A stretch of 61,285 bases of DNA from Pirellulales bacterium (GTDB taxonomy: Bacteria; Planctomycetota; Planctomycetia; Pirellulales; JACPPG01), in contig DASXEJ010000077.1 in the NCBI GenBank assembly GCA_036490175.1, positions 1 to 61,285 on the forward strand. Direction: 5' to 3'. The translations under genes and the position numbers were made by a program. The notes below the pieces were generated by a model. The model saw only the letters and a program-made list of their open reading frames with translations. It did no database searches and was not told where the DNA came from. Within the stretch, counting starts at the first letter, position 1. Each line of letters starts with the position of its first letter. Of this stretch, positions 19,984 to 39,502 are shown one piece after another.

Positions 19984-20114
19984 CGTAAACGTCGCCGTTG
20001 CCGCACAGACACTCTGTCGTGGCAAAAAATGGTGCCCATAGCGCACCGCAACGCAAGGGAGTGCGTGCGTCTTTGAAATAGTCCCGAACGGATTCATTGC
20101 GATCGCGAGCAAGG

Positions 20115-21164
20115 ATGCTTGAGCGACTCTTCGGACTGCTGGGTTCCGACCTGGCCATCGACCTGGGTACAGCCAACACGCTGATCGGCGTGGCGGGCGA
20201 GGGCCTGATCGTCGACGAACCCTCGGTCGTGGCCGTCGAAGAGGGAACGACTCGCGTCGTCGCGGGGGGACGCGCGGTCGGCCATCTGGCCAAGCAGATG
20301 CTGGGGCGAACGCCTGGCAGCATTACAGTAGTTCGTCCTCTCTCGGCTGGCGTCATCACGGATTTCGAGTTGTGCGAAGCGATGCTGCGCTACTTTCTCA
20401 ACAAGGCGCAGCGCGGCGCGTGGTCACGTGGACCACGCGTGTTGGTGGCCGTGCCCGGCTCGATAACGCCGGTCGAAAAACGCGCCGTGTACAACAGCGC
20501 GCATCGAGCGGGCGCCCGGCAAGTATTTCTAGTCAGCGAGGCAATTTGCGCAGCGGTTGGCGTGGGCCTTCCGATCACAGAGCCCGTGGCCAGCATGATT
20601 TGCGACGTGGGTGGTGGCACAACCGAAGTGGCCGTGCTCAGCCTGGGAGACGTCGTGGCCAGCACCTCGGTGCGCGTGGGGGGCGATCGCATGGATCAAG
20701 CGATCCTCGATCACTTGCGCCGCCATCACAACTTGCGGATTGGCGTGGCAACCGCTGAACAATTGCGGATCGAAATCGGTAGCGCAGCGCCGCTCGCAGA
20801 CGAACTGCTCACCGAGGTGCGCGGCGTCGACGCGACGACCGGCCTGCCGCGTCGAGAGGAACTGTCGAGTGTCGAGATGCGGGAAGCGCTGGCCGGGCCA
20901 TTGGCTGACATCATTGACGCGCTAAAAGCCACGCTCGACGGCTGCAGTCCCGACCTGGCATCTGACCTGGTTGAGCATGGCGTTGTACTGTCCGGCGGTG
21001 CGGCCTTGCTGCGGCAGTTCGATGTGTTGGTCCAGCAGAGGATAGGCCTGCCGGCGCGCGTGGCTCCGGAGCCGCTAACGACTGTCGCCAGCGGCATGCT
21101 CACCCTGCTCGAGCACCTGCCCCAATGGCAACAGATGCTCGAATCGAGCGACGACGATGTATAA
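20115..21164 (+). CDS. mreB: Rod-shape-determining actin homologue MreB
   Basis: A 349-residue actin-fold ATPase. The phosphate-1 loop reads AIDLGTANTLIG (about 15-26), phosphate-2 reads ICDVGGGTTEVAVLS (about 161-175), the interdomain and adenosine segments VAVPGSITPVEKRAV and VVLSGGAALLRQFD are present, and the C-terminal LTTVASGM phrase matches MreB. Filaments of MreB guide peptidoglycan synthesis along the inner membrane. It begins with LERLFGLLGSD, an amphipathic stretch suited to membrane attachment. The ATG at 20115 is preferred to an in-frame TTG at 20097. Its last 8 bases overlap the mreC start. The ribbon of charged and insertion residues differs from enterobacterial MreB, but no key ATP-binding residue is missing. 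Confidence 0.92.
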   Translation: MLERLFGLLGSDLAIDLGTANTLIGVAGEGLIVDEPSVVAVEEGTTRVVAGGRAVGHLAKQMLGRTPGSITVVRPLSAGVITDFELCEAMLRYFLNKAQRGAWSRGPRVLVAVPGSITPVEKRAVYNSAHRAGARQVFLVSEAICAAVGVGLPITEPVASMICDVGGGTTEVAVLSLGDVVASTSVRVGGDRMDQAILDHLRRHHNLRIGVATAEQLRIEIGSAAPLADELLTEVRGVDATTGLPRREELSSVEMREALAGPLADIIDALKATLDGCSPDLASDLVEHGVVLSGGAALLRQFDVLVQQRIGLPARVAPEPLTTVASGMLTLLEHLPQWQQMLESSDDDV

Positions 21165-22146
21165 AGAGCACGCCTGGCGAAAACTGGCTGGCACTCCACG
21201 CGTGACGCTGGCCGTTACGCTCGTGGCAGGATTGATTTTGGCCCTGCTGCCGCGCCGCGCCATCGAGCCGCTGGCCACGCTTTATGCGGCCTGCGTCGAT
21301 CCGGGCCGAACGGCGGCGGCGCACGTGCGCGACCTAGGAACGCAGGTCGTCGCGCGCGTGCAGGAATCGTCGGCCACGGCCGACGACGTTACGCAACTCG
21401 CCGACGAGGTGCGCCGCTTGCGCGCTCGAAATCGCGAGTTGGAAACAGCCTTGGCCGTAGCCAGCAGCAGGTCGAGTCAACGCGATTGCTCGCTCGCAGC
21501 CTCCGAGGCACCGCCGCTGCTGCTGGCAAGTGCGATTCGCGGCCGGGTGTTGGGGCGCCGCGCCTGTGCCGTATTGTCCGCTACGCATATCGTGGCGGTC
21601 GGCGCGCGCGCTGGTGCGGAGCGCGAGTCATTGGCGCTCGTCGATAGCACTATTGGTCTCGATTTGGGTCAGGACAACGGACTAACCGCCGGAGACATCA
21701 CCCTCGAAGGTCGGCGCGTCTTCGGCAAGATATGCGACGTCGGACCGTACACTTCCGGGATACGGCGTGCTGACCAGGCAGGCTACCGCGATGTCGTCCA
21801 ATTGGCGCGCAAGATCGACGGCACGCTGCAATTCGGGCCGAGGGGAATCCTGGAAGGGAGCGGAGAGCATCATGGCCGTGTTCGACTGGTGAGCGCGAGC
21901 GAGACGATCGAGCCCGGTAATCTTGTCTTTACCGCAGGGCACGAAGGGCTGGCGCAGCAGCCCCTTTTATATGGCGTTGTGGCTCGGGCCGAGCATCGTG
22001 GGGGCGCACCGCATTGGGACATTTGGGTCGATCTTGCCGCGGGCGGCGACGAGCCTAGCCACTTGGTGGTGCTACGTGCCGGAGTGAATCCGGATCGCCT
22101 GGTAGCGACCCAGTCCGAATTCGTGCCTGGTCGAAATGACGAATAA
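21157..22146 (+). CDS. mreC: Rod-shape-determining protein MreC
   Basis: A 329-residue protein with a short cytoplasmic N-terminus, one membrane helix at about 11-29 (TLAVTLVAGLILALLP), a coiled coil at about 67-105 (QLADEVRRLRARNRELE) and a C-terminal region with two beta domains. The phrase GLDLGQDNGLTAGDI near residue 168 is the MreC assembly signature. MreC dimers sit in the periplasm and link MreB filaments and MreD to the PBP2 transpeptidase. The start codon lies within the end of mreB (ATGTATAAAGAG), a classic coupling overlap. mreD follows after 27 bases. Confidence 0.87.
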   Translation: MYKEHAWRKLAGTPRVTLAVTLVAGLILALLPRRAIEPLATLYAACVDPGRTAAAHVRDLGTQVVARVQESSATADDVTQLADEVRRLRARNRELETALAVASSRSSQRDCSLAASEAPPLLLASAIRGRVLGRRACAVLSATHIVAVGARAGAERESLALVDSTIGLDLGQDNGLTAGDITLEGRRVFGKICDVGPYTSGIRRADQAGYRDVVQLARKIDGTLQFGPRGILEGSGEHHGRVRLVSASETIEPGNLVFTAGHEGLAQQPLLYGVVARAEHRGGAPHWDIWVDLAAGGDEPSHLVVLRAGVNPDRLVATQSEFVPGRNDE

Positions 22147-22173
22147 GGTAAGCCAGTCGGCGAGCAAGCAACG

Positions 22174-22677
22174 ATGATCAGCCTGTTGGGAATCCTATTG
22201 TTGACGTACGTGGCAGCCATCGCCGAGACGGCGTTTGTGCCGACGCTCGCAGTCTATCACGCAGTGCCCAACGTGCTGGCGCTTTTGGGAATTCTATGGG
22301 CGGCATCAGCCGGCTCGTCTCAACTGCGGATTATCGAAGGGGCGTCGATCGGCCTCGTGTTTGATCTAAATTCTGGCAGCCATGTGGGAGTCGGCGTGGT
22401 TGCTTTTGCGCTGCTGGCGTTCGCTGTGATTCAAGCGCGGGCCGCCATACGTTGCCTGGGAATAGTGCAACAATCGATGGTGTGCGCGCCGCTGGTGGCC
22501 GGGATGATGCTAATCGTCGCCATGGGAAATCGGTTATTCGGAGAGGCCGTCCCTCCGCTTTCGGTTGTTTTGTGGGGGGCGGCGACAACCGCGGTCTACT
22601 CGGCAGCGGTCAGCTTGCCGATCTGGATGATGGTCGACTGGACGCGCGAAGTCCGTCGCGCCGCGTCGACGCTGTGA
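22174..22677 (+). CDS. mreD: Rod-shape-determining membrane protein MreD
   Basis: A 167-residue, mostly hydrophobic protein with about five membrane helices, beginning MISLLGILLLTYVAAIAET. The size, hydrophobicity and place between mreC and the PBP2 gene identify it as MreD; sequence conservation in this family is low. The N-terminal helix, the VPNVLALLGILWA segment and the C-terminal LPIWMMVDWTREVRR helix and basic tail match the family layout. It acts as an inner-membrane partner of MreC and PBP2. The stop lies 41 bases before the PBP2 start. Confidence 0.78.
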   Translation: MISLLGILLLTYVAAIAETAFVPTLAVYHAVPNVLALLGILWAASAGSSQLRIIEGASIGLVFDLNSGSHVGVGVVAFALLAFAVIQARAAIRCLGIVQQSMVCAPLVAGMMLIVAMGNRLFGEAVPPLSVVLWGAATTAVYSAAVSLPIWMMVDWTREVRRAASTL

Positions 22678-22718
22678 CAACGCGAAGCGTACGGCGGCCT
22701 GTCCGTGCCAAAGAATCC

Positions 22719-24917
22719 ATGCACAAACCTTCCCCGAATAATGTGCCCCGTCTCCTTACGCAGGCCCCTTCGTCGGCGCCGGCGACGATTGCCGACTCTG
22801 TCCGGCGGATGCGTCGGATGGCGATCGGCTTCGCAATCTGTTTAGCGTTGGTCTTCTTGCGCATTGTGGGGCTCGAGTTTTCCGAAGGTCGCGAGTTTCG
22901 CGCCTTGGCAGCCAAGCCGCTAGAAAAGACGCGCCCATTGCCTGGCGTGCGCGGGAGGATTCTCTCGCATGATCGCCAGGTGCTGGCCTTCGACCAGCGC
23001 ATAGCTTCGCTGGCGGTTCACTACCGATACCTGGAAGATCCAGCCAGCGCCCGTTGGTTGCGAAGCCAGGCGCGGGCGCGGATACCGCGCGATGAACCAC
23101 ACCGCGCAACCCGGCTGGCCGCCGAATTGACTTGGGTCACCGACTATCGTGCCGGGTTGATCGATCGCTTGGCGCGGCTCTGCGGCCGCCCCAGCGATGA
23201 GGTTGCCGCCCAGAGTCAGCATATCCAAATGCGTGTGCGCGGCATTGCCAAGGCCGTGAATCGCAACCGCCGCGCCGCCGCGCCGCCGAATTCCGTCGCC
23301 GACACGAACGAACAGCAAATCTGGCAGACCCTGCTTGCGCAATTGCCACTGTGGCTGTTTGCCTCGGACGAGCCGCGCGATCCGGCGAACGTTATTGTCG
23401 CCGAGGAGTTGGACTATCACGTGCTCGTGGCGGATATACCGCTAGAGGTCGTTGCCGAAATCGAGTCACGCCCGCTGGATTACCCGGGAGTTCGAATCGT
23501 CGAGCAATCTCGTCGACAATATCCAGCAGGTTCATCCGCCGCAAACATTCTGGGCCACCTTGGTCAGCCGGACGATGCGCGCGCAGGTGACGAAGCCGAC
23601 GTTCCAGGCAAACTTGTCGGTCGGTTGGCAACCGAAGGCGAGTTCGAGTCGCTGCTGCGCGGCCGCAACGGTCGCCTGGTAGATCTGACCGATCACAGCG
23701 GACGCTTGCTCAGCACCTATCGCCAGACGGAGCCAGCCAGCGGGCTCGACGTGGTGCTGACGCTGGATGCGCGATTGCAACATATCGCGGAAGAACACCT
23801 GGACCGCGCTTTGTCCAAGAAAGTGGGAGAAAAAGACGCCGTACTATCTGCCGGCGGCGCGATTGTTGTCCTGGATGTTACATCCGGCGCGATACTGGCC
23901 GCGGCGACGGCACCTCGCTTCAACCCAAACCTCTTCGCGGGCCAAGGCAACGACGCGGTGGAACGCCTGTTGCACGATCCGGCGCACCCGCTCTTCGATC
24001 GGGTGATCAAGATGGCCATTCCACCCGGATCCGTATTCAAGGTCGTTACGGCGTTGGCCCTGTTGGCTGACAACGAGTTTGATCCTGAAGCTACGTTCGA
24101 TTGCCAGGGCTTTCTCGTGCAGCCAGATCGGCAACGCTGCCAGATCTTTCGCCGATATGGGCTGGGGCACGGTCCGACGAATCTTTCCGCTGCACTCGCC
24201 CAGAGTTGCAATGTGTACTTCTTTCACCATGCCGAACGAGTAGGGCCGGCAGCATTACACGATTGGGCAACACGACTGGGGCTGGGCCTGCCAACCGGAG
24301 TCGATTTGCCAGGCGAGTCACCAGGCTTTGTCCCCGATCCGGCCCACACTGGTATGTCGGAACACACCTGGTCCTTAGCGGACACGCAGGCACTTAGCAT
24401 TGGCCAGAGCACGCTCACGGCTACGCCGCTCCAGGTGGCACGCCTGATGGCGGCTATCGCCAATGGCGGTTTGCTCGTGAGGCCGCACATTCTTTCAAAT
24501 TTCGACGCGGAAACGATCGAAAGGCGAGGGGACATCACGGCCGCAACGGCGCAGGCCGAAGTGCGGAGCCGGCTGATCGCAGGTCTCGGACCCAGCCAAC
24601 TGGCGCTGCTGCGTGGCGCGCTGACACGCGTCGTCGATGATCCGCAGGGAACTGCCTATGCGGCGCTCGCCGACAGCGGCGTCGCCGTGGCCGGCAAGAC
24701 GGGCACCGCGGAAACCGGAGATCGTTCGCCCGATCATGCCTGGTTTGCCGGCTATGCGCCGGCCCATGTACCGCGCGTGGCGTTTGCCGTGGCGCTGGAA
24801 CATCACGGCTCGTCCGATCAAGCGGCGGCCGTCGCCAAAGAACTGGTACAGGCGATGCAGGCCTTGGATTTGTTGTCGGATACGGGCAAGCTTGAAGTCG
24901 CAGGCCGAGAGCGCTAA
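22719..24917 (+). CDS. mrdA: Class B penicillin-binding protein 2 (transpeptidase)
   Basis: A 732-residue class B PBP. After a basic tail, a membrane helix spans about 38-56 (MAIGFAICLALVFLRIVGL). A non-catalytic pedestal region containing PGVRGRILSHDRQVLA follows, then the transpeptidase domain with S-x-x-K at Ser438-Lys441 (PPGSVFK), S-x-N in AQSCNVYFF and K-T-G in AGKTGTAETGDRS. It cross-links peptidoglycan during elongation. At 732 residues it is about 100 longer than E. coli PBP2; the extra length is in the pedestal (roughly 90-240). The frame extends upstream inside mreD, but the ATG at 22719 follows its stop. The next gene converges after 28 bases, so no rodA partner lies beside it. 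Confidence 0.9.
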   Translation: MHKPSPNNVPRLLTQAPSSAPATIADSVRRMRRMAIGFAICLALVFLRIVGLEFSEGREFRALAAKPLEKTRPLPGVRGRILSHDRQVLAFDQRIASLAVHYRYLEDPASARWLRSQARARIPRDEPHRATRLAAELTWVTDYRAGLIDRLARLCGRPSDEVAAQSQHIQMRVRGIAKAVNRNRRAAAPPNSVADTNEQQIWQTLLAQLPLWLFASDEPRDPANVIVAEELDYHVLVADIPLEVVAEIESRPLDYPGVRIVEQSRRQYPAGSSAANILGHLGQPDDARAGDEADVPGKLVGRLATEGEFESLLRGRNGRLVDLTDHSGRLLSTYRQTEPASGLDVVLTLDARLQHIAEEHLDRALSKKVGEKDAVLSAGGAIVVLDVTSGAILAAATAPRFNPNLFAGQGNDAVERLLHDPAHPLFDRVIKMAIPPGSVFKVVTALALLADNEFDPEATFDCQGFLVQPDRQRCQIFRRYGLGHGPTNLSAALAQSCNVYFFHHAERVGPAALHDWATRLGLGLPTGVDLPGESPGFVPDPAHTGMSEHTWSLADTQALSIGQSTLTATPLQVARLMAAIANGGLLVRPHILSNFDAETIERRGDITAATAQAEVRSRLIAGLGPSQLALLRGALTRVVDDPQGTAYAALADSGVAVAGKTGTAETGDRSPDHAWFAGYAPAHVPRVAFAVALEHHGSSDQAAAVAKELVQAMQALDLLSDTGKLEVAGRER

Positions 24918-24945: not shown

Positions 24946-27900
24946 TTAATTCGGTTCGCGCAACACGATCGAACGCCCAGTCGACAGGGCCAGCAACTGC
25001 GGAATATCGAACTCGGCCAGCAATCCGAAGGCAAACAGCTCGGGAAACTCCGCAACGGTTTTATCTTCTTCGATCAGTTGCCGCAGGCTCTTTAACGAGC
25101 CCGTGAGTTCGGCGCCTTGGATTGCCGACGGCTCGATCGCCGAGGCAACAAGCGCGGCTGTGCTCGAACGCGGACCGGCTGCAAAAATCGTGATCGGCTC
25201 GTCGGGACGAAGCTCTCGAACGAAGCGGGCTATCCCCGCCAATTGTGCGGCCTGTATCGCCAGTGGCCGCTCGCCAACGGCCGACAGGAACAGCGGATAA
25301 AGGTACGGGGGGTCCTGCGCTACGACCTCGGATTCGCCCAACGAGAGGACGTCGACCGCCAGCACGCGATAGCCGGCCGGCACCAGTCGCCGGACTTCGT
25401 CCGTAGCGTTTCTTCTGCCGGCATCACTGACCAGCAGCGCCGTTTTCTGGGGCCGTGCGTCACTGGCCATGATCTCCAGGCATGGCACGGTCCACTGATC
25501 GCCACAACGCCAGAGGTGCGACGCAAGCTGGTAGCCCTCGATGCGACTAGCGGTCTTTGGTGAGTCCGCGACTTCGTATCGAGGAATTTTCAACAACTGT
25601 TCCAGTCGTTCTCGCATGGCGTGCTGCCACTGTTCGGCTGGGACTTTTTCAGTAGGCATCGATTCCGCATGCGGAACGTCTGCGAGCAAGCTCTTTGCCA
25701 ACCGCGTGAAATCGAGATTCTCGGTCGGTAGCGGCACGTGCAATTCCGCGGCTGTTTTCAACTCGGCGCGCGACGGAATCTCCTCGCGGACAAACTTGGT
25801 GTCGCCCGCGTAGAAGAAATCGCCGATCATGGCGTACAACTGTTCGCGATTCTCTTCATCGAAGTTATGGGTGCCTGGCGTGTAGTTGACGTGCCAACGC
25901 AACTGATCGGCGGCACCGCCAAGGGCAAACGCCGGCCGAGCCGCCTCCAAAAGCGGGGCGAGCGCGTATCCTGCCTTGAAGCAACAGTCGTCACCGGCGT
26001 TGTACGTCAACAGCGTGGGTCGCGGGGCGCGCAGCGCGGTCAGATGCGTGTAGTCCGCCACGGTCGCCATATCGGTGGGAGACTGTTCGGAGTCTCCCAT
26101 ATCGTCAAATAGGAGGTTCGTGCGAAAGCCACCGTATCCGGCCACGGGGTTTGCCAGCGTGACGCGTTCGTCGAGCGCAGATAACAAAATGGTTTGCCAG
26201 CCCCCACCCGACAATCCTGTGACCAACACGCGGTTGGGATCAACATGTTCAAGCGATAGCCCTAAGTCTAATGCCCGCGTCAGCGACAAATAAAACGGCG
26301 CCAGACCACCGGCGCCGCACAGTTCGAGCTGATTCATGCGGTAGTGCGAGAAACCTGACGTCGCGAGTTGCCCCATCCCGATCCATTCCAGATCGAGCAC
26401 TATCATGCCCCGCTTGGCGAGATTGATGCTCAGCAACTGCTTGTAATCAGTCGCCTTTCCTTCCTTCGTATGGCCGTTCAGGCTAAGCACCAGCGGCACC
26501 GAATCCTGCATGTGCTCTGGCAGGTAGGCCACGCCCGGAATCCACATGCCGGGCAGCGCCTCGTAGCGAAATTTGCGCAAGTGGTAGCCCGGCCCGCCCG
26601 GCACCATGTCGAGCCACGCGACTTCCGTCTTCGCCTGGCGCCAGGCCCGGGCGCGGCCACGGAAGATTATCTTTTCGAGCATGTTCTGGCGTATCTTCGC
26701 TGCGTCTTGTTGCCACCTGAGAAGACTCTCGAACTTTGGCGGCGCGACGATGCGTGGCTCGGCAAATGCTCTCAGCTCGGTCAACGGCGTGCCGGCCGGC
26801 AATAAGGATTGCTCAAGCGCCATCTGCAATTCCGAAATGCCCGGCTTAGCGGCGGGCGTCGTGCGCGCGGCGTGACGCCCTTTGAGTTCGAGCAAGATGT
26901 CCCGCGAGCGACGAAAATAATCGATCGCCTTTTGCTTTTCCGGCGCCGTGCGGGCCGAGTGATCCAGAATCTGTTCGTCCAATCGCGCGACGAGCCAATC
27001 GACGTCGGCTGCCTGATACGGACGTCGCCCGCCAATACTCACGTAGACCGGGTTCGTATGCGCTTCGGCGTCGGCCGCACCGGTGGGTGCGGTTGAAAAG
27101 GCGCGCGCCGCGATCCAGCTCGATTCTTTGATCTCGACTGTCTCATTCAATTCCAGCCATTGGCCGGCCCCCACATCGCGCGGCACCTTCAGCTCGCGTA
27201 CGACCCGGCCGTTGACGACGAGGTGTACATTCGTAACGGCCGCCGTCTCGCTGCGCACGCGCACCTGGGCACGCACGCGATGCGGCTTCGACTCGGCAAC
27301 GTTTTGCACCTCGACCGTGTCGCCGGCATGATGCCCGTCGACTTCCAACAGGATCAGCGGTCCACTGGTGACGAAGCTGCGTCCTGCGGCGGCCGCTTTC
27401 AGCCAGGCCTCGAAGGTGGGCTCACCATCTACATGCGCGTACGTGCGGCAATCTCCCAGCTTGCGACAGGCGGGATAATCGCTGGCGGCAATCGCCGGAA
27501 ACCGAAAGCCCGCGTTCAGGGCGTGATACCAGCCATCCAATCCAATGCCGCGATAAATGCCGAACTGCAACAGCTCGACGCCGGTCGTGGCCCCTTGCAC
27601 TAAATCGGCCCAGATCTCGAGTCCGTATCCGCCATGCGCGTGAAAAGCGTAACCTCCTTGCTGCCTGGTCTCTTCACCAATCGCGCCGAAAAGCGGCCCG
27701 TTATTGGGATCAAGCCGCACCCCATCCAGGTACAACCGGTCGCGTAGGAATAGATTCAGGTGCCCCAGCACCCCGTTACGGTACTCCTGGCCTGAGATAA
27801 TTCGATAGTCGCCGCGTTGGCGAACCGACTTGGCGCCCAGTCCGCGCAACTGCGGCGTCGCCAACTCAGGCATCAGCCCCGGATAGGCACTCGTGTCGTC

Positions 27901-28596
27901 GTTATAGCAGAGGACCATTCCTAGTCGGATGTCTTCGGCAGCGAGCAAATCGAAGATCGTATCGTCATCCGCGTCGTTGGCGCGCGTGAAATGCAAATGC
28001 GGATCAGCCGAGTGCCAACCCAAATCCGGCATCGAGACAGCTTTCACCAGCTTGATTTGTACGTCCTGCGGCGCACCGGCAACGGCGTGGGTGGAAAGCA
28101 TCTCGACACGATATTCAAAACCCTTCCAGACTTCGATACGCGTGGCACCGGCTGGCACCTCGACACTGAAAGTGCCGCGCGTGTAAAAGAAGTGGCCGAA
28201 GTAGCGAATCGGCGCCTTGCCCGGCCGGTTGCCGGCCAACGTTTCGGGCCAGTTGCCGATCAGGCTGTAAGGCCGCAGCGGATTGTCGCTGGGCTGGTAA
28301 TAGTTGCCGTCGCTCCCGACGACATTCACACGGCAAGGGGTCGGGTTGCCCGTCGCGCTGTCGAGGATCACGACGTTCAGCCGTGCTGCCTGTGCACCCT
28401 CGGTAGTAGCTGGCTTGCCGGCCTGTCGGAACCCGGCCGGGGTGAACAGGTACGCCTCGTCACGCTTGTCGGGCGTCGTGCGGTCGAATTGCCCGTGCTC
28501 GGCGTACGTCAATGCCGGACCGCAGCAGACTACGGCGCAGCAGCATGCAAACCCCACCAACAGAGATCGAGAAAATAATCCAGTGACAGCGTTCAT
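24946..28596 (-). CDS. CehA/McbA-like metallohydrolase fused to acetyl-xylan-esterase-like hydrolase
   Basis: A 1216-residue secreted protein with a signal peptide of about 32 residues that is unusually rich in cysteine (FACCCAVVCCGPALTYA). Residues about 70-190 form a beta-sandwich-like region. About 193-415 resembles the CehA/McbA (PHP-like) metallohydrolase family: WHSADPHLH (His200, His202), AAEDIRLGMV and YAFHAHGGYGLE. A second beta segment (about 420-520) and a helical linker lead to an alpha/beta hydrolase at about 620-930 with GLSGG around Ser796, Asp869/870 and His910 in GTHNFDEE. The last roughly 280 residues look like a further degenerate hydrolase-like lobe. Likely role: cleaving esters or phosphoesters of an external polymer. 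Convergent with PBP2; divergent from another esterase gene. Confidence 0.8.
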   Translation of the reverse strand: MNAVTGLFSRSLLVGFACCCAVVCCGPALTYAEHGQFDRTTPDKRDEAYLFTPAGFRQAGKPATTEGAQAARLNVVILDSATGNPTPCRVNVVGSDGNYYQPSDNPLRPYSLIGNWPETLAGNRPGKAPIRYFGHFFYTRGTFSVEVPAGATRIEVWKGFEYRVEMLSTHAVAGAPQDVQIKLVKAVSMPDLGWHSADPHLHFTRANDADDDTIFDLLAAEDIRLGMVLCYNDDTSAYPGLMPELATPQLRGLGAKSVRQRGDYRIISGQEYRNGVLGHLNLFLRDRLYLDGVRLDPNNGPLFGAIGEETRQQGGYAFHAHGGYGLEIWADLVQGATTGVELLQFGIYRGIGLDGWYHALNAGFRFPAIAASDYPACRKLGDCRTYAHVDGEPTFEAWLKAAAAGRSFVTSGPLILLEVDGHHAGDTVEVQNVAESKPHRVRAQVRVRSETAAVTNVHLVVNGRVVRELKVPRDVGAGQWLELNETVEIKESSWIAARAFSTAPTGAADAEAHTNPVYVSIGGRRPYQAADVDWLVARLDEQILDHSARTAPEKQKAIDYFRRSRDILLELKGRHAARTTPAAKPGISELQMALEQSLLPAGTPLTELRAFAEPRIVAPPKFESLLRWQQDAAKIRQNMLEKIIFRGRARAWRQAKTEVAWLDMVPGGPGYHLRKFRYEALPGMWIPGVAYLPEHMQDSVPLVLSLNGHTKEGKATDYKQLLSINLAKRGMIVLDLEWIGMGQLATSGFSHYRMNQLELCGAGGLAPFYLSLTRALDLGLSLEHVDPNRVLVTGLSGGGWQTILLSALDERVTLANPVAGYGGFRTNLLFDDMGDSEQSPTDMATVADYTHLTALRAPRPTLLTYNAGDDCCFKAGYALAPLLEAARPAFALGGAADQLRWHVNYTPGTHNFDEENREQLYAMIGDFFYAGDTKFVREEIPSRAELKTAAELHVPLPTENLDFTRLAKSLLADVPHAESMPTEKVPAEQWQHAMRERLEQLLKIPRYEVADSPKTASRIEGYQLASHLWRCGDQWTVPCLEIMASDARPQKTALLVSDAGRRNATDEVRRLVPAGYRVLAVDVLSLGESEVVAQDPPYLYPLFLSAVGERPLAIQAAQLAGIARFVRELRPDEPITIFAAGPRSSTAALVASAIEPSAIQGAELTGSLKSLRQLIEEDKTVAEFPELFAFGLLAEFDIPQLLALSTGRSIVLREPN

Positions 28597-28731
28597 GAAC
28601 TTGAGGGCGCGATTACACTAGGGGCCGGGGTACAGCTCGCTTCTTCGGTGCAATGCTATACAGAGCCTCGGCGAGCCGCAACGAGTTGGCCCCTGATTTA
28701 CGTTCCCGGCAGATGTCGACGAGGTAAAGCA

Positions 28732-29463
28732 ATGCGATACGCAATTTCGATGCTGGCCCTGCTGAATGTATTCTCCCTGGCTGGCCTGACCCGCGCCGAC
28801 GAGCCTGCGCAAAAGCCAGCCAAGCTCGACACGCAGTTACATGTGACGCTCGACTACTTGCTCTATCTGCCGGCCGATTACGACGCGAAAAAGGACTGGC
28901 CGCTCGTGGTGTTTCTGCACGGGGCTGGCGAACGAGGAGACGACCTGAACCTTGTGAAAAAGCATGGGCCTCCCAAGCTCATCGAGCAAGGCAAGGCGTT
29001 CCCGTTCATCGTGGTGAGCCCACAATGTGCCAAAAACAACTGGTGGCATTGGCAGCTGCGGGAATTGTCGGCACTCATCGACGATGTGGTGGCTAAATAC
29101 AAGGTCGACAAAGATCGCATCTATCTCACCGGCATCAGCATGGGAGGCTTCGGCACCTGGGCGCTGGCGTCGTACGACCCCGATCGATTCGCCGCGATCG
29201 TGCCGATCTGCGGCGGTGGCGAAGTTTTGGCGGCCGCGCGGCTGCGGCAGACGCCCATCTGGGCATTCCATGGTGCCAAAGATCCGATCGTTCCTCTTAG
29301 GCGCTCTGAGGAATTGATCAACGCCCTGCAAAAGAATAATCCGCAAGCGAAATTGACGGTCTATCCCGAGGCCATGCACGATTCGTGGACGGCGACGTAC
29401 GATAATCCCGAAGTCTACGCCTGGCTGCTCGAGCACAAGCGAACGTCCGCTACGGCACCCTAA
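28732..29463 (+). CDS. Secreted alpha/beta hydrolase (prolyl-oligopeptidase/PHB-depolymerase-like esterase)
   Basis: A 243-residue exported esterase. The signal peptide (about 1-22) ends at LTRADE. The hydrolase core runs from LYLPADYD with PLVVFLHGAGERGDD (oxyanion region), the nucleophile serine in LTGISMGGFGTW (about 145), the acid in FHGAKDPIVP and the histidine in EAMHDSWT. Relatives are annotated as phospholipase/carboxylesterase or PHB-depolymerase-like. The ATG at 28732 has a GAGGTAAAG ribosome binding site and produces the signal peptide; the frame is open to 28648. It is divergent from the large metallohydrolase/esterase gene with 135 bases between them, so the two may be expressed together on the same substrate. 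Confidence 0.86.
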   Translation: MRYAISMLALLNVFSLAGLTRADEPAQKPAKLDTQLHVTLDYLLYLPADYDAKKDWPLVVFLHGAGERGDDLNLVKKHGPPKLIEQGKAFPFIVVSPQCAKNNWWHWQLRELSALIDDVVAKYKVDKDRIYLTGISMGGFGTWALASYDPDRFAAIVPICGGGEVLAAARLRQTPIWAFHGAKDPIVPLRRSEELINALQKNNPQAKLTVYPEAMHDSWTATYDNPEVYAWLLEHKRTSATAP

Positions 29464-34166: not shown

Positions 34167-35651
34167 TTACGCCATCAATTGGGGCACGATGTGCGCCGGC
34201 TCAACCGTGCTGAGCCGTTGATCGAGTCCCTGGAAGTGGTACGTGAAACGCTGATGGTCGAAGCCCAGCAGATGCAGCACCGTGGCGTGGAAGTCTCGCA
34301 CGTGGACCGGATCGCGGATAATGTTGTATGAAAACTCATCGGTTTCACCGTGGATCATGCCCCCCTTCGATCCGCCGCCCGCCATCCACATGGTGAAGCA
34401 GCGCGGATGATGATCGCGGCCGTAGTTGTCCTTCGACAACCCTCCCTGCGAGTAGATCGTGCGGCCGAATTCTCCACCCCAAATAATCAAGGTCTCGTCG
34501 AACAGGCCGCGAGCCTTCAGGTCTTGAATCAGTCCGTAGCAGGGTTGATCGATGTCGCGACACTGATCCGGCAATCGGCCGGCGACGTTGCCATGCGTGT
34601 CCCAGTTATTCAGATAGACCTGGACGAAGCGCGTGCCACGCTCGATCATCCGCCGCGCGAGTAGCACGGTATGACCGAAGCTGCCCGGCTTGCGCGCCGT
34701 TTCGCCGTAAAGCTTGTACGTCGATTCTGGCTCGCTGCTCAGATCCGTCAACTCGGGCACGCTCGATTGCATGCGGAACGCCAGTTCGTACTGCTGGATG
34801 CGGGTGTGCGTCTCGGGATCGCCCACCTGCCTGAAATTCATTTCGTTCAGCTCGCGCAATCCGTCCAGCGTATTGCGGCGCACCGCCGAGGGCACACCCG
34901 GCGGGTTGTTGATGTACAGAATCGGATCGGCGCCCGCGCGGAACGACACGCCGGCGTGCTCGCCCGGCAGGTAACCGGCCGACCAGAGCCGTGCCGAGAT
35001 AGCTTGTACCTGCTCGGTATTGGTTGGCTTGGCCACCAACACCACAAACGTGGGCAGGTCCTGGTTCATAGAGCCCAAGCCGTACGACACCCAAGAGCCC
35101 AGGCAGGGCCGTCCGGTAATCTGGTTGCCGGTCTGCATATAGCTGATGGCCGGCTCGTGATTGATGGCTTCGGTCTGCATGCTGCGGATAAAGCAGATGT
35201 CGTCGACCGATTTGGCCAAGTTCGGCAGCAGCTCGCTCACCCACATACCGCTGCCGCCGTGCTGGGCGAATTTGAACTTCGAGGGAGCAATCGGAAACCG
35301 CTTCTGGCCCGAAGTCATCGTCGTCAGCCGCTGGCCCATGCGGATCGAATCGGGCAGGTCCTTGTCAAACCATTCCTGCATGGTGGGCTTGTAGTCGAAC
35401 AGGTCCATCTGGGCAGGGCCGCCGACCATGTGCAGGTAAATCACCTGCTTGGCCTTGGGGGCGAAATGGGGGCCGATCGGCAAATGACCGTCAGGCATGC
35501 CGGCCGGCGTGCTGCTGGTCGCGGCCTGTGCGCGGGACAATCCGCCCCCCAAGAGCGACGCCAGCGCCGCCGTACCCAGGGCATTCGCCCCGCGGGTAAA
35601 GAACTGGCGGCGGGTCTCACTGCGAACCCATTCTTCGAAAAGCGGATGCAT
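34167..35651 (-). CDS. DUF1501 protein with twin-arginine leader
   Basis: A 494-residue protein. ETRRQFFTRGANALGTAALA (about 12-31) is a twin-arginine leader followed by AQA, so it is exported folded. The DUF1501 body shows VIYLHMVGGPAQMDLFDYKP near 70, the LNNWDTHGNV phrase, IIWGGEFGRTIYSQGG and GRDHHPRCFTMWMAGGGSKGG near the end: the alkaline-phosphatase-like/sulfatase-type core conserved in this family. The enzymatic role of DUF1501 is not established. It lies directly downstream of a DUF1549/DUF1553 cytochrome-like protein with 111 bases between them, the pairing seen again and again in planctomycete genomes, so the two very likely work together. Confidence 0.9.
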   Translation of the reverse strand: MHPLFEEWVRSETRRQFFTRGANALGTAALASLLGGGLSRAQAATSSTPAGMPDGHLPIGPHFAPKAKQVIYLHMVGGPAQMDLFDYKPTMQEWFDKDLPDSIRMGQRLTTMTSGQKRFPIAPSKFKFAQHGGSGMWVSELLPNLAKSVDDICFIRSMQTEAINHEPAISYMQTGNQITGRPCLGSWVSYGLGSMNQDLPTFVVLVAKPTNTEQVQAISARLWSAGYLPGEHAGVSFRAGADPILYINNPPGVPSAVRRNTLDGLRELNEMNFRQVGDPETHTRIQQYELAFRMQSSVPELTDLSSEPESTYKLYGETARKPGSFGHTVLLARRMIERGTRFVQVYLNNWDTHGNVAGRLPDQCRDIDQPCYGLIQDLKARGLFDETLIIWGGEFGRTIYSQGGLSKDNYGRDHHPRCFTMWMAGGGSKGGMIHGETDEFSYNIIRDPVHVRDFHATVLHLLGFDHQRFTYHFQGLDQRLSTVEPAHIVPQLMA

Positions 35652-35762
35652 AAAAACCTCGGAATTAGTATTCGATAGCCGGGGGGCAAGTCGTCAGGAG
35701 CCCGCGCTCAGTCTCGCAAATTCATTCTGATTAATAACGACGGATTGCTCGCCACTGTGTTC

Positions 35763-38700
35763 CTATTTATTCAACACTTCGTCCAGATTCAGTAGTTCGT
35801 TGGCCAGCATCGTCCAACCGGCCAGCGTGCCGGCGTCGAGTGCCGCGTCGGGTTGCGATTCGCCGAACGTGACGACCTGTCGCGCGTCATCGGCGTGCTC
35901 ACGATAAAAGGCGACCAGTGACGCCACCGATTTTTCCACCAGCGGCTGCTCTTCAGCGGTAAAGGGGCGCGCCAGCAGTCGTCGGGCCAGGAAATCGATC
36001 CGCGACGGATCGTTGTCTCCCCCTTCGCGCAGTGTTCGCTCGGCCAGCCGTCGCGCCGCTTCAACCATCTGGGGGTCGTTCAACGTTGCCAGAGCTTGCA
36101 GCGGCGTATTCGTCCGTTCGCGGCGCACGGTGCATTGCTCGCGGTTGGGGGCGTTGAAAATCTCCATCGACGCTGGCGGGGCCGCACGCTTCCAGAACGT
36201 ATACATGCTGCGGCGATACAGGTTATCGCCCGAGTCACGCTTGTAGTCGCGGGTGTTGCTGCCGATCATGGCCACCGCCTCCCACACGCCTTCAGGCTGA
36301 TAGGGGCGGACGCTCGGGCCACCGAGCTTGCGCGTCAAAAGCCCGCTCGCCGCCAAGCCATAGTCACGCACCATTTCGCCATCCATGCGAAAGCGCGGGC
36401 CGTGCGCCAGCAAGCGGTTCTGAGGATCCTTCTCCTGCTTCTCGGTGGTGGTGGCAGCCGATTGCCGGTATGTCGCCGACAGTACGAGCTGCCGGAAGAA
36501 GCGTTTCATATCCCAGCCGTTTTCGCGGAAGTCGACGGCCATCCAGTCCAACAGCTCCGGATGCGACGGCAGTTCGCCCGCGACGCCGAATTCGCCACTC
36601 GTCTTGACCAGCCCCGTGCCGAACACTTCCTGCCAGAATCGGTTCGTCGTTACCCGTGCCGTCAGCGGATGCTCGGGTCGCAACAACCACTGGGCATAAC
36701 CCAGGCGGTTGCGCGGCACTTCGGCCGGGAAAGGGGGCAGGATATCCGGTGTGTCGGCCTTTACTTCGTCACGGCGTTTGTCGTAGTCACCTCGATAAAG
36801 GATGTAGGCCACCGGGGTATCGGTTTTTTCCTGGGCCACATGGGCAATCGTGGCCCGCCCCTTGATGGCGGCCTCGCTGGAATCCAACTCGCGCTTGCGC
36901 GCCGTAAGTTGCTGGTACGAAGGATCGACCGCTGCTAGCCACCAACCGTACAGCTCTTCGACCTCGCTCGGGCTGCGTCCTTCGGCCGGCTTGGCCACCA
37001 GGTACGCGGCGCGCGTCGCGCTGGCAAGCTGTGCCACTTCGGCCGGCTCGAGGGACCGGCTGTACAAACGCAGATCTTGCAGCGACAAATCGTCAACGCG
37101 CGAGCTGGTATTGCGCTGCGCCAGTTTCAAGGGGACCGTGGTGCGGATGGAATTCTTCAACGAATTGGCCGCCACCTCGACGTCTTGCACCGCGCCGTCG
37201 ACGTACAGCTTCACCCCTTCGGCCTTACCCGACCCGTCGTAGGCGACCGTCACATACTGCCACTTGTCGACCGTCATTGGCTTCTTGCCGACCACCTTCA
37301 CGGCGTCATCCGGCCAGCTATGAACAATGTGCGTCGCCGGGCGACCATTATCGAGCCACATGTCCCAGCCACGATATCCGCTCGCTTCGTCCATGCGAGC
37401 AACCATCGCCCCGCTGAGTTTCTCGCGCGGCACCTTGACCCAGGCACTGCAGGTAAACGCCTGATCCTTCTCGAAGTCGCCGACACCGGCCACCTCCATC
37501 ACCGTTTCGGGCCGGCTTTTGAAAGCCTTGCTGGCCGTCACGCCGGTATCCCAGGCTGGCTCCGCGCCGAGCGTGACCGGCCGAGGCTGCCCGCCAACCG
37601 ATACGGCCAGCACGTTGCCGGCGCTCTCGCCCAGCGGGGCATAAAACGCCAGGCCGGCGCTTACCAGTTTGGCTTCGATCGTGGCCGGCGCGGCTTGCGC
37701 GAGCCAGACGTCGAATTCTCCGCGGGCCGCGGCACGTCGCGAATCGATCTGTTGCTGCGCGGTCGCTAGCTGGCCGGGGAGTTGCTCCCAAGCGTGGCAA
37801 TCTTCCATCGTGGGAACGACCACCACCGGAGGCGTATCCTTAATGTTGCCGTCCATGGCACCCTGGGTGGTGTTATTGAAGAACGCCGCCATCTCGTAGA
37901 ACTCGCGCTGCGAGAAGGGATCGAACTTGTGATCGTGGCACACGGCACAACCGGTCGTCATGCCCAGCCACACCTGAGAAACCGTCTCGGTGCGATCGCG
38001 CGTGTACAGCACCAGATATTCTTCCGGGATGACCCCCCCTTCGTTGGTCGTCATGTTGCAACGATTGAAGCCCGAGGCCACCAATTGGTCGAGCGTGCGC
38101 CCCTGCAGCAAGTCGCCGGCCAATTGCTCGATCGTGAATTGGTCGAAAGGCAAGTTGCGATTCAGCGCGTTGATGACCCAATCGCGATAGGCCCAGCCCT
38201 CGCGATAGTTGTCAAAGTGGATGCCGTGCGTATCGGCGTAGCGGGCCGCATCGAGCCAATAACGCCCGCGATGCTCGCCCCACTGCGGCATGGCCAGCAG
38301 GCGATCGACATAATGTTCGTAGGCCTCGGGCGACGGGTCATTGACGAACGCCTCGACGTCGGCCGGCTCTGGCGGCAGGCCAACCAGGTCGAGACTCGCG
38401 CGACGCGCCAAGGTGCGGCGATCCGCTTCGGGCGCAGGCTTCAGCCCTAACGATTCGAGCCGCGCTAAGATGAAGTTGTCGATCGGGCTGCGCGGCCAGG
38501 CTTTATCCTGCACCTCGGGCACAGCCGGACGCACCGGCGCGATAAACGACCAGTGCGGCTGATACTCGGCACCGGCCGCGATCCAATCGGTGAGCATTTT
38601 CTTCTGCTCGGGCGAGAGCGTCTTGTGCGCGGCCGCCGGCGGCATCACGGTGTCTGGATCCGTCGAATTGATCCGTTTCACCAGCTCGCTTTCCTCCGGC

Positions 38701-38921
38701 TTGCCGGGTTGAAACGCCCCACTCTCGATGGCCGCCTCGCGACGGTCGAGCCGCAGGTCCGCCTTACGCGACGCACTGTCCGGCCCGTGGCAGGCAAAAC
38801 AGTTCTCGGCCAAGATCGGCCGAATGTCGTGGTTGTAGCCGATCGCCTCGCCTGCCTGAGCCGTGGCAGTCAATAGTGCCAGGCAAACCAGAGCGGCCAG
38901 CAGATGCGCGCGTCGCGTCAT
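35763..38921 (-). CDS. PSCyt1-DUF1549-LamG-DUF1553 surface protein
   Basis: A 1052-residue secreted protein. After a signal peptide (about 1-23) comes a cytochrome-c-like PSCyt1 domain with the heme motif C41-x2-C44-H45 (ENCFACHGPD) and distal MPP (VMPPAAAHKTLSPEQ). DUF1549/PSCyt2 follows (PRSPIDNFILARLESLGL, NLPFDQFTIEQLAGDLLQ) with a second C-x-x-C-H (CAVCHDHKFDPF). A LamG-like concanavalin domain occupies about 440-640 (FTCSAWVKVP). DUF1553/PSD1 ends it (NRFWQEVFGTGLV, PNREQCTVRRERTNTPLQAL). Such proteins are restricted largely to planctomycetes and their relatives. The role in electron transfer or sugar processing is inferred. The ATG at 38921 precedes the signal peptide; the frame is open to 39197. 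The DUF1501 gene follows. Confidence 0.92.
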   Translation of the reverse strand: MTRRAHLLAALVCLALLTATAQAGEAIGYNHDIRPILAENCFACHGPDSASRKADLRLDRREAAIESGAFQPGKPEESELVKRINSTDPDTVMPPAAAHKTLSPEQKKMLTDWIAAGAEYQPHWSFIAPVRPAVPEVQDKAWPRSPIDNFILARLESLGLKPAPEADRRTLARRASLDLVGLPPEPADVEAFVNDPSPEAYEHYVDRLLAMPQWGEHRGRYWLDAARYADTHGIHFDNYREGWAYRDWVINALNRNLPFDQFTIEQLAGDLLQGRTLDQLVASGFNRCNMTTNEGGVIPEEYLVLYTRDRTETVSQVWLGMTTGCAVCHDHKFDPFSQREFYEMAAFFNNTTQGAMDGNIKDTPPVVVVPTMEDCHAWEQLPGQLATAQQQIDSRRAAARGEFDVWLAQAAPATIEAKLVSAGLAFYAPLGESAGNVLAVSVGGQPRPVTLGAEPAWDTGVTASKAFKSRPETVMEVAGVGDFEKDQAFTCSAWVKVPREKLSGAMVARMDEASGYRGWDMWLDNGRPATHIVHSWPDDAVKVVGKKPMTVDKWQYVTVAYDGSGKAEGVKLYVDGAVQDVEVAANSLKNSIRTTVPLKLAQRNTSSRVDDLSLQDLRLYSRSLEPAEVAQLASATRAAYLVAKPAEGRSPSEVEELYGWWLAAVDPSYQQLTARKRELDSSEAAIKGRATIAHVAQEKTDTPVAYILYRGDYDKRRDEVKADTPDILPPFPAEVPRNRLGYAQWLLRPEHPLTARVTTNRFWQEVFGTGLVKTSGEFGVAGELPSHPELLDWMAVDFRENGWDMKRFFRQLVLSATYRQSAATTTEKQEKDPQNRLLAHGPRFRMDGEMVRDYGLAASGLLTRKLGGPSVRPYQPEGVWEAVAMIGSNTRDYKRDSGDNLYRRSMYTFWKRAAPPASMEIFNAPNREQCTVRRERTNTPLQALATLNDPQMVEAARRLAERTLREGGDNDPSRIDFLARRLLARPFTAEEQPLVEKSVASLVAFYREHADDARQVVTFGESQPDAALDAGTLAGWTMLANELLNLDEVLNK

Positions 38922-39502
38922 TTCGAAATCCCCGGAGAAGCAGTTCAGGCGGGAGGGTGCAATGCCAAGAGACGATGCGCCGGGTGGGGTAGGCAGGGCT
39001 GAGGTCGGCGCGACTCGCCTCTGGCCATGATTGTAAACCATCGTACGAGCGGAGGAAACAATTCGGCGGCCAGGAACTGGGAGGGGCGTCGCCGACTTGG
39101 GAGGGTGGCAGCCCGGGAAAGTCCGGCCGCCGCCATGAGGTTGCGGATCAGCGACCGTGCATCGGCAGGACACGAGGCCACGGGCTGGCAGAGGCAAGCC
39201 GGCCGTTAAGTCCCGCTGCGCCGGACGCGGCGCTGCGGTTTTTGCCGACTGGCGCAGAGTTTGCTATCGTTTCCCGCCGGCGTTTCCCGTCGGACTCGCT
39301 ACTCGGTAGTCGTCGCAGTCACCGCCCGACGGCATCCTGATAGGCGTCTGGGGCACACGGGGGTCAAGAATTCGGGTCCCAGGGCAAGACTTACCATGGC
39401 AGGGTCCCAGATCAAACAATTTACGTATTTCGCAATTCACGTATTACACTTTGGTACGCTCTGATTCCGAGCGTTTTCTTCCGCCAGGCAAGGGTCTTCG
39501 AC
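38922..39502. other. Divergent intergenic region with AT-rich repeat patch
   Basis: No credible gene. It must hold the promoters for the DUF1553 gene (minus) and the metallopeptidase gene (plus). An AT-rich island at 39408-39447 stands out from its GC-rich surroundings and contains a 13-bp tandem direct repeat (listed separately). GGGTCCCAG occurs twice just before it, at 39374-39382 and 39402-39410. TTTACG (39420) and TATTAC (39442), 16 bases apart, could serve as a weak -35/-10 pair. Confidence 0.5.
39417..39445 (+). promoter_or_regulatory. 13-bp tandem direct repeat, operator-like
   Basis: CAATTTACGTATT (39417-39429) and CAATTCACGTATT (39433-39445) agree at 12 of 13 positions and are separated by TCG, a 16-base period. 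They overlap a possible -35/-10 pair and end 57 bases before the ATG of the zinc-ribbon metallopeptidase. Direct repeats of this size and position are typical of response-regulator binding sites, but no regulator gene lies nearby. Confidence 0.45.

What the first reader, a model, noticed from the sequence alone, without database searches (positions are those of the whole stretch)
24946..28596. 1216-residue fusion of a CehA/McbA-like metallohydrolase with an acetyl-xylan-esterase-like hydrolase
A single exported chain carries a metal-dependent PHP-like domain (His200, His202) and a complete alpha/beta hydrolase triad (Ser796, Asp869/870, His910), plus a further C-terminal lobe that looks like a second, degenerate hydrolase. 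The two activities are normally separate proteins. With a secreted esterase gene transcribed divergently 135 bases away, this may be a dedicated system for stripping two kinds of substituents from one external polymer.
Basis: partly seen in the sequence, partly recalled or inferred. Interest (0 to 1): 0.6.

Follow-up and report, generated by a model that had tools for sequence, protein, structure and literature searches.

The report
Secreted metallohydrolase–sugar esterase fusion enzyme
A planctomycete gene joins two enzymes in one exported protein, a metal-dependent hydrolase of a family known only for breaking down carbamate pesticides and a pectin-methylesterase-like serine esterase, and because evolution has coupled these two enzymes more than once they probably work on the same sugar polymer, which gives a testable lead to the natural job of the pesticide-hydrolase family.

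Summary
The gene is real: one 1216-codon frame (24946-28596, minus strand; the finding gave no strand). Residues 193-519 are a CehA/McbA PHP metallohydrolase with its catalytic histidines. Residues 595-943 are a serine esterase with an intact triad, closest to the pectin methylesterase BT1017 (CE19), not to acetyl-xylan esterases. Residues 964-1216 are a second, degenerate alpha/beta-hydrolase domain. The fusion recurs in three other genomes of the genus (about 65% identity), so it is not an assembly error; I saw it nowhere else in 396 genomes of the order or 392 of the phylum. In the nearest outside relatives the CehA domain carries a beta-propeller–HEAT–cytochrome c tail and the esterase is the next gene, 3-12 bases on; trees place the loss of that tail, with joining, in the window's genus. 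Elsewhere the same CehA domain is fused, in the opposite order, to a different BT1017-type esterase. So CehA and this kind of esterase were joined at least twice, and neighbours (sulfatase, heparinase/alginate-lyase-like gene, 3-keto-disaccharide hydrolase, symporter) point to glycan breakdown.

The parts
24946..28596 (-). Whole fusion gene, 1216 aa plus stop
   Evidence: same joined frame in G001, G002, G003
28501..28596 (-). Residues 1-32: probable Sec signal peptide (cleavage near TYA|E)
   Evidence: read from sequence, no predictor run; stand-alone relatives also begin with hydrophobic leaders
28021..28500 (-). Residues 33-192: conserved beta-rich N-terminal part of the CehA module
   Evidence: present in the CehA relatives; confidently predicted
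27040..28020 (-). Residues 193-519: CehA/McbA PHP-type metallohydrolase domain
   Evidence: NF038032 153 bits; PHP fold Z 16.0 to 2anu
27991..27999 (-). H200 and H202, the HxH metal motif
   Evidence: invariant in 27 CehA rows, aligned with HxH of McbA and CehA
27784..27786 (-). E271, candidate metal ligand
   Evidence: invariant in 27 rows; shared with McbA, absent in CehA
27760..27762 (-). H279, aligns with McbA His467 and CehA His453
27634..27636 (-). H321, aligns with McbA His504 and CehA His495
27478..27480 (-). D373, candidate metal ligand
   Evidence: invariant
26815..26865 (-). Residues 578-594: fusion junction; a propeller-HEAT-cytochrome c module sits at this point in relatives
25768..26814 (-). 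Residues 595-943: BT1017-like (CE19-like) catalytic alpha/beta hydrolase domain
   Evidence: 6goc E 1.7e-13; Z 33.3 over 325 residues
26209..26211 (-). S796 nucleophile (aligns with BT1017 Ser282)
25990..25992 (-). D869 triad acid (aligns with BT1017 Asp352)
25867..25869 (-). H910 triad base (aligns with BT1017 His388)
26344..26472 (-). Stretch from H709 (26470-26472) to H751 (26344-26346), which align with the two zinc histidines of BT1017
   Evidence: the two zinc cysteines of BT1017 are not conserved
24949..25707 (-). Residues 964-1216: second, degenerate alpha/beta-hydrolase lobe; R1143 (25168-25170) stands where the nucleophile serine would be
   Evidence: Z 14.9 to 3nuz, 13.5 to 6goc; R1143 conserved in the 27-row esterase alignment
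28597..28731 (.). 135-base intergenic region between the divergent genes
28732..29463 (+). Divergently transcribed, probably secreted carboxylesterase (Abhydrolase_2/DLH/PHB-esterase-like, GISMGG)
   Evidence: orthologue beside the fusion in G001 (71%) and G003 (74%)

Best explanation
An exported two-enzyme fusion for breaking down an external glycan. The N-terminal half is a CehA/McbA-family PHP metallohydrolase: metal ions held by H200, H202, E271, H279, H321 and D373 activate water to cut an ester-type bond whose natural substrate is unknown. The C-terminal half is a BT1017-like serine esterase (S796-D869-H910) that would remove methyl or acyl esters, most likely from a uronate-bearing sugar, followed by a catalytically dead copy of the fold (R1143 in place of serine) that probably serves structure or binding. 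The gene arose in this genus when a CehA-propeller-HEAT-cytochrome c gene lost its redox tail and was joined in frame to the esterase gene behind it. Shown by computation: domain identities, conserved catalytic residues, predicted folds, history, restriction to the genus in the samples. Inferred: export, activities, uronate substrate, and that both sites serve one substrate.
For: CehA domain NF038032 153 bits, PHP fold Z 16.0, catalytic His shared with McbA and CehA. Esterase: 6goc best by sequence and structure, Z 33.3 against about 26 for CE15 and 21 for CE7. History: fusion clade 100/98 inside a clade with the CehA-propeller operon relatives 100/100; esterase tree agrees, fusion 100/98, then 96/92 and 99/95 with operon relatives. 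Second joining in opposite order: BT1017-type hydrolase (6goc E 1e-76, zinc CxC kept) at the N-terminus of CehA in about 2000-aa proteins. Co-occurrence outside the fused genus: 9 of 14 CehA-bearing genomes also have the esterase, base rate 54 of 392, p 1e-5; 6 of 11 with operon cases removed, p 0.001. Glycan context: sulfatase directly downstream in G001 and G003; heparinase/alginate-lyase-like gene between esterase and CehA genes in a Hydrogenedentota contig; esterase fused to 3-keto-disaccharide hydrolase in G143 and G187; symporter after the esterase in G017, G033, G062.
Against: No substrate evidence for either half. Many genomes carry the esterase without a close CehA gene (45 of 58), so the two are not obligate partners. 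The window's own locus lacks the CMD gene of its genus mates and the sulfatase next to it. The two zinc cysteines of BT1017 are missing. The relative placement of the two active sites was not determined; the full-chain model is poor in the esterase half. Co-occurrence counts are not corrected for shared ancestry beyond the genus count (p 0.001-0.007).
Confidence: 0.62

Rival explanations
1. The two halves do unrelated work. The join is a by-product of a deletion in an operon and gives only co-expression and co-secretion; the CehA half may act on a small ester or carbamate rather than on the glycan.
For: The esterase is a promiscuous module: it stands alone in most genomes and is joined to a nitrilase-type domain, a 3-keto-disaccharide hydrolase or a propeller-cytochrome c in others. 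Characterised CehA/McbA enzymes hydrolyse carbamates (PMC8292978).
Against: CehA was joined to a BT1017-type hydrolase independently in the opposite order, the genes co-occur beyond chance, and they lie near each other with a polysaccharide-lyase-like gene in another phylum.
Confidence: 0.25
2. One half is catalytically dead and serves as a binding or targeting module for the other.
For: The C-terminal lobe shows that this protein line keeps dead hydrolase copies, and the esterase half lacks the zinc cysteines of BT1017.
Against: The expected catalytic residues of both CehA and the first esterase domain are conserved across divergent relatives.
Confidence: 0.1
3. Assembly or sequencing artefact joining two genes.
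For: The genome is a draft in 393 contigs, and the halves are separate genes in the nearest outside relatives.
Against: The same joined frame is in G001, G002 and G003, separately assembled, at about 65% identity; no step in GC3 at the junction.
Confidence: 0.01

Closest known systems
BT1017 (PDB 6GOC), CE19 pectin methylesterase of Bacteroides thetaiotaomicron
   Same: alpha/beta hydrolase fold (Z 33.3), Ser-Asp-His triad in register, both zinc histidines
   Different: zinc cysteines Cys315/Cys317 absent; C-terminal DUF3826 replaced by a second alpha/beta lobe; 20% structural identity; fused behind a PHP metallohydrolase
TBR22_41900 of Luteitalea (PMC10483417), CE19 protein with a degenerate second CE19-like domain
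   Same: two-lobe layout of about 634 aa, zinc histidines kept in the first lobe, zinc site lost in the second
   Different: not fused to CehA; direct sequence comparison not made here
McbA (Pseudomonas sp. XWY-1) and CehA (Sphingobium sp. CFD-1) carbaryl/carbofuran hydrolases
   Same: PHP-type domain, HxH, and the catalytic histidines equivalent to H279 and H321; 27% identity to McbA over the domain
   Different: no esterase half; their known substrates are synthetic carbamates; McbA His477 is not conserved here
Four-module planctomycete proteins (L059, L060, L061, L064, L066, L068, L081): BT1017-type hydrolase, CehA, propeller, HEAT, cytochrome c
   Same: same CehA subfamily joined to a BT1017-superfamily esterase
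   Different: opposite order, a distinct zinc-motif-bearing esterase, extra redox module
CE15 glucuronoyl esterases and CE7/AXE1 acetyl-xylan esterases
   Same: same general fold and Ser-His-acid triad
   Different: structurally more distant (Z about 26 and 21 against 33 for BT1017)

Membership tests
CehA/McbA metallohydrolase (NCBIfam NF038032) | profile score above the curated cut-off | tested here: met
   153 bits against 80
CehA/McbA metallohydrolase (NCBIfam NF038032) | HxH motif and the catalytic histidines of CehA (453, 495) and McbA (467, 504) | tested here: met
   H200, H202, H279, H321
CehA/McbA metallohydrolase (NCBIfam NF038032) | PHP fold | tested here: met
   predicted model, Z 16.0 to 2anu, 14.8 to PsfC
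CehA/McbA metallohydrolase (NCBIfam NF038032) | metal-dependent ester or carbamate hydrolysis | not testable with these tools
   needs enzyme assay
CE19 (BT1017) pectin methylesterases | closest solved relative is BT1017 | tested here: met
   best in sequence (E 1.7e-13) and structure (Z 33.3)
CE19 (BT1017) pectin methylesterases | Ser282-Asp352-His388 triad | tested here: met
   S796, D869, H910 aligned
CE19 (BT1017) pectin methylesterases | zinc site of two Cys and two His | tested here: not met
   both His kept (H709, H751), both Cys absent; conserved D835/E837 lie in that loop. TBR22, listed in CE19, is reported to keep the His, so this may not be family-defining; I call the half CE19-like and do not file it as CE19
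CE19 (BT1017) pectin methylesterases | CAZy/dbCAN assignment and pectin methylesterase activity | not testable with these tools
   no dbCAN library or assay here
TBR22-type tandem CE19-like proteins | second alpha/beta lobe without a working active site | tested here: met
   R1143 in place of the nucleophile
CE7/AXE1 acetyl-xylan esterases | full-length AXE1 domain as nearest relative | tested here: inconclusive
   AXE1 25.8 bits over 21 but only profile 60-204 of 321; structure nearer to BT1017

The most novel reading that the evidence does not exclude
CehA/McbA-family PHP hydrolases have a natural role as glycan-tailoring enzymes that act in tandem with BT1017-type esterases (and, in relatives, with a propeller-cytochrome c oxidation module). 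The window's protein is a compact version of that pathway, and the PHP half would be a kind of carbohydrate esterase or lactonase not yet described.
Probability: 0.35. Interest if true: 0.7.

Novelty: new variant of a known kind. Interest (0 to 1): 0.42.

Why it matters
CehA/McbA enzymes are known from pesticide-degrading bacteria, where they hydrolyse man-made carbamates, so what the family does in nature is open. Repeated physical joining of this domain to a pectin-methylesterase-like enzyme, in both orders and with a shared glycan neighbourhood, turns that into a concrete test: assay the fusion, and each half with its active site removed, on esterified uronate glycans.

Tried and rejected
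Plus-strand reading: 17 stops. PDB sequence search with the CehA profile: no hit, so the fold call rests on the predicted model. Full-chain fold gave a good CehA domain but a failed esterase core because only a few esterase rows were usable; refolding the esterase half with 14 rows worked (pLDDT 83.8, pTM 0.84). Metal geometry and the distance between the two active sites could not be measured: no coordinates were available. The named-genome scan keyed only on CehA motifs, so it under-samples stand-alone esterases. No paper found that links CehA/McbA with planctomycete glycan loci. Neighbours of the four-module relatives are not consistent, so they were not used as primary evidence. McbA His477 has no counterpart. 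The positions 313/315 reported for CehA are not histidines in the plasmid record used, so HxH was matched by alignment alone. By my count BT1017's zinc His201 falls at 200; the other six positions match the paper exactly.

Full report
Observation. The ORF at 24946-28596 is a single open frame of 1216 codons on the minus strand; the plus strand has 17 stops. The own genome is a 7.58-Mb draft of 393 contigs, and the window is contig C77.

CehA half. NCBIfam places residues 193-519 in CehA_McbA (153 bits, cut-off 80). Alignment of 27 relatives gives invariant H200, H202, E271, H279, H321 and D373 (offset 32). I fetched the plasmid genes mcbA (Pseudomonas XWY-1) and cehA (Sphingobium CFD-1). H279 aligns with McbA His467 and CehA His453, H321 with McbA His504 and CehA His495, residues reported as essential (PMC8292978). 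The predicted domain is confident (pLDDT about 95 over most blocks) and matches PHP proteins: 2anu Z 16.0, PsfC 14.8, EndoQ 14.6, 3e38 13.9. The metal geometry itself could not be measured.

Esterase half. Its best solved relative is 6goc, BT1017 (E 1.7e-13), ahead of acetyl-xylan esterases (4e-5). S796, D869 and H910 align with Ser282, Asp352 and His388 of BT1017, which were confirmed by mutation (PMC7939467; numbering check). The refolded half (pLDDT 83.8, pTM 0.84) gives 6goc Z 33.3 over 325 residues at 2.9 A, 3nuz 29.1, CE15 about 26, CE7 about 21. BT1017's zinc ligands are Cys315, Cys317, His201 and His244: both histidines are kept here (H709, H751), both cysteines are not, and a conserved G-D-x-E-Q loop (D835, E837) lies there instead. 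The C-lobe 964-1216 matches the same fold (3nuz Z 14.9, 6goc 13.5), but at its nucleophile elbow arginine (R1143) is conserved in the 27-row alignment. The same two-lobe layout was described for TBR22_41900, a CE19 protein of Luteitalea (PMC10483417), so this half is of a published type.

Relatives and history. In G053 and G017 the CehA domain continues into a DUF7133 (PVC-type) propeller, HEAT repeats and a CxxCH cytochrome c (1563-1575 aa), and the esterase is the next gene, 12 and 3 bases on. G033 shows the same order split over two contigs. In G040 propeller-HEAT-cytochrome c is fused to the esterase at a contig end, and another contig end of that genome holds a matching CehA start, so a triple fusion is likely there but unproven. 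A scan of named genomes found 30 loci, nearly all Planctomycetota with some Verrucomicrobiota and one Hydrogenedentota. Seven complete proteins of 1966-2035 aa have the order alpha/beta hydrolase, CehA, propeller, HEAT, cytochrome c, and L067 is hydrolase-CehA alone. That N-terminal hydrolase is a closer BT1017 relative (E 1e-76, zinc CxC kept) and only 23-26% identical to the window's esterase. In the CehA tree the window's fusion is a clade (100/98) within seven rows that include the operon relatives (100/100), inside a 26-row clade nearly all of which carries the propeller tail (100/99). The esterase tree agrees: fusion 100/98, then operon relatives at 96/92 and 99/95. The simplest reading is loss of the redox tail with in-frame joining in the window's genus, and a separate joining in the other order elsewhere. 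At E below 1e-60 the fusion was found only in the window's genus among 396 genomes of the order and 392 of the phylum.

Function by association. Upstream of the fusion in G001 and G003 lies a carboxymuconolactone-decarboxylase-family gene and directly downstream a sulfatase, with the divergent esterase beyond. A symporter follows the esterase in G017, G033 and G062. In the Hydrogenedentota contig an esterase homologue, a heparinase II/III or alginate-lyase-like gene and the CehA gene lie together. The esterase is fused to 3-keto-disaccharide hydrolase in G143 and G187, and to a nitrilase-type domain in G126. CehA and the esterase co-occur in genomes of the order beyond chance: 9 of 14 against a base of 54 of 392 outside the genus, p 1e-5; 6 of 11, p 0.001 without the operon cases; p 0.001-0.007 at genus level.

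Verdict. Domain identities, conserved catalytic residues and history are shown by computation. Secretion, activities, the uronate-type substrate and joint action on one polymer are inferred. The fusion is a new combination of known families with a published precedent for its esterase half. The most useful point is the repeated coupling of a CehA/McbA domain with BT1017-type esterases in a glycan context, which makes the natural role of the CehA/McbA family testable.

Noticed in passing
L059, L060, L061, L064, L066, L068, L081: Giant proteins of 1966-2035 aa: BT1017-type hydrolase, CehA, DUF7133 propeller, HEAT, cytochrome c, in Planctomycetota and Verrucomicrobiota.
   Followed up: partly
L047 6999-11612 and L113 2-673 (G040): Propeller-HEAT-cytochrome c fused to the same esterase at a contig end, and a CehA start at another contig end of the same genome: probably one triple fusion split by the assembly.
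   Followed up: partly
L105 3345-6560, L106 2070-5180, L117 5227-8046: The same esterase fused behind a 3-keto-disaccharide hydrolase domain (G143, G187) or a nitrilase-type CN_hydrolase domain (G126; similar N-terminal part in L122 of G705).
   Followed up: partly
L077 1-5355: Hydrogenedentota contig with an esterase homologue, a heparinase/alginate-lyase-like gene and a CehA gene side by side.
   Followed up: partly
window 25168-25170 (R1143): Arginine conserved across the family at the nucleophile position of the dead hydrolase lobe; may bind an anionic ligand.
   Followed up: no
L080 3620-5359: CehA homologue split into two adjacent frames, likely a frameshift or sequencing error.
   Followed up: no
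window 34167-39197: DUF1501 gene next to a PSCyt1/PSCyt2/PSD1 protein with a LamG domain, a common planctomycete pair of unknown function.
   Followed up: no
window 20097-24917: mreB-mreC-mreD and a class B penicillin-binding protein run convergently towards the fusion gene.
   Followed up: no
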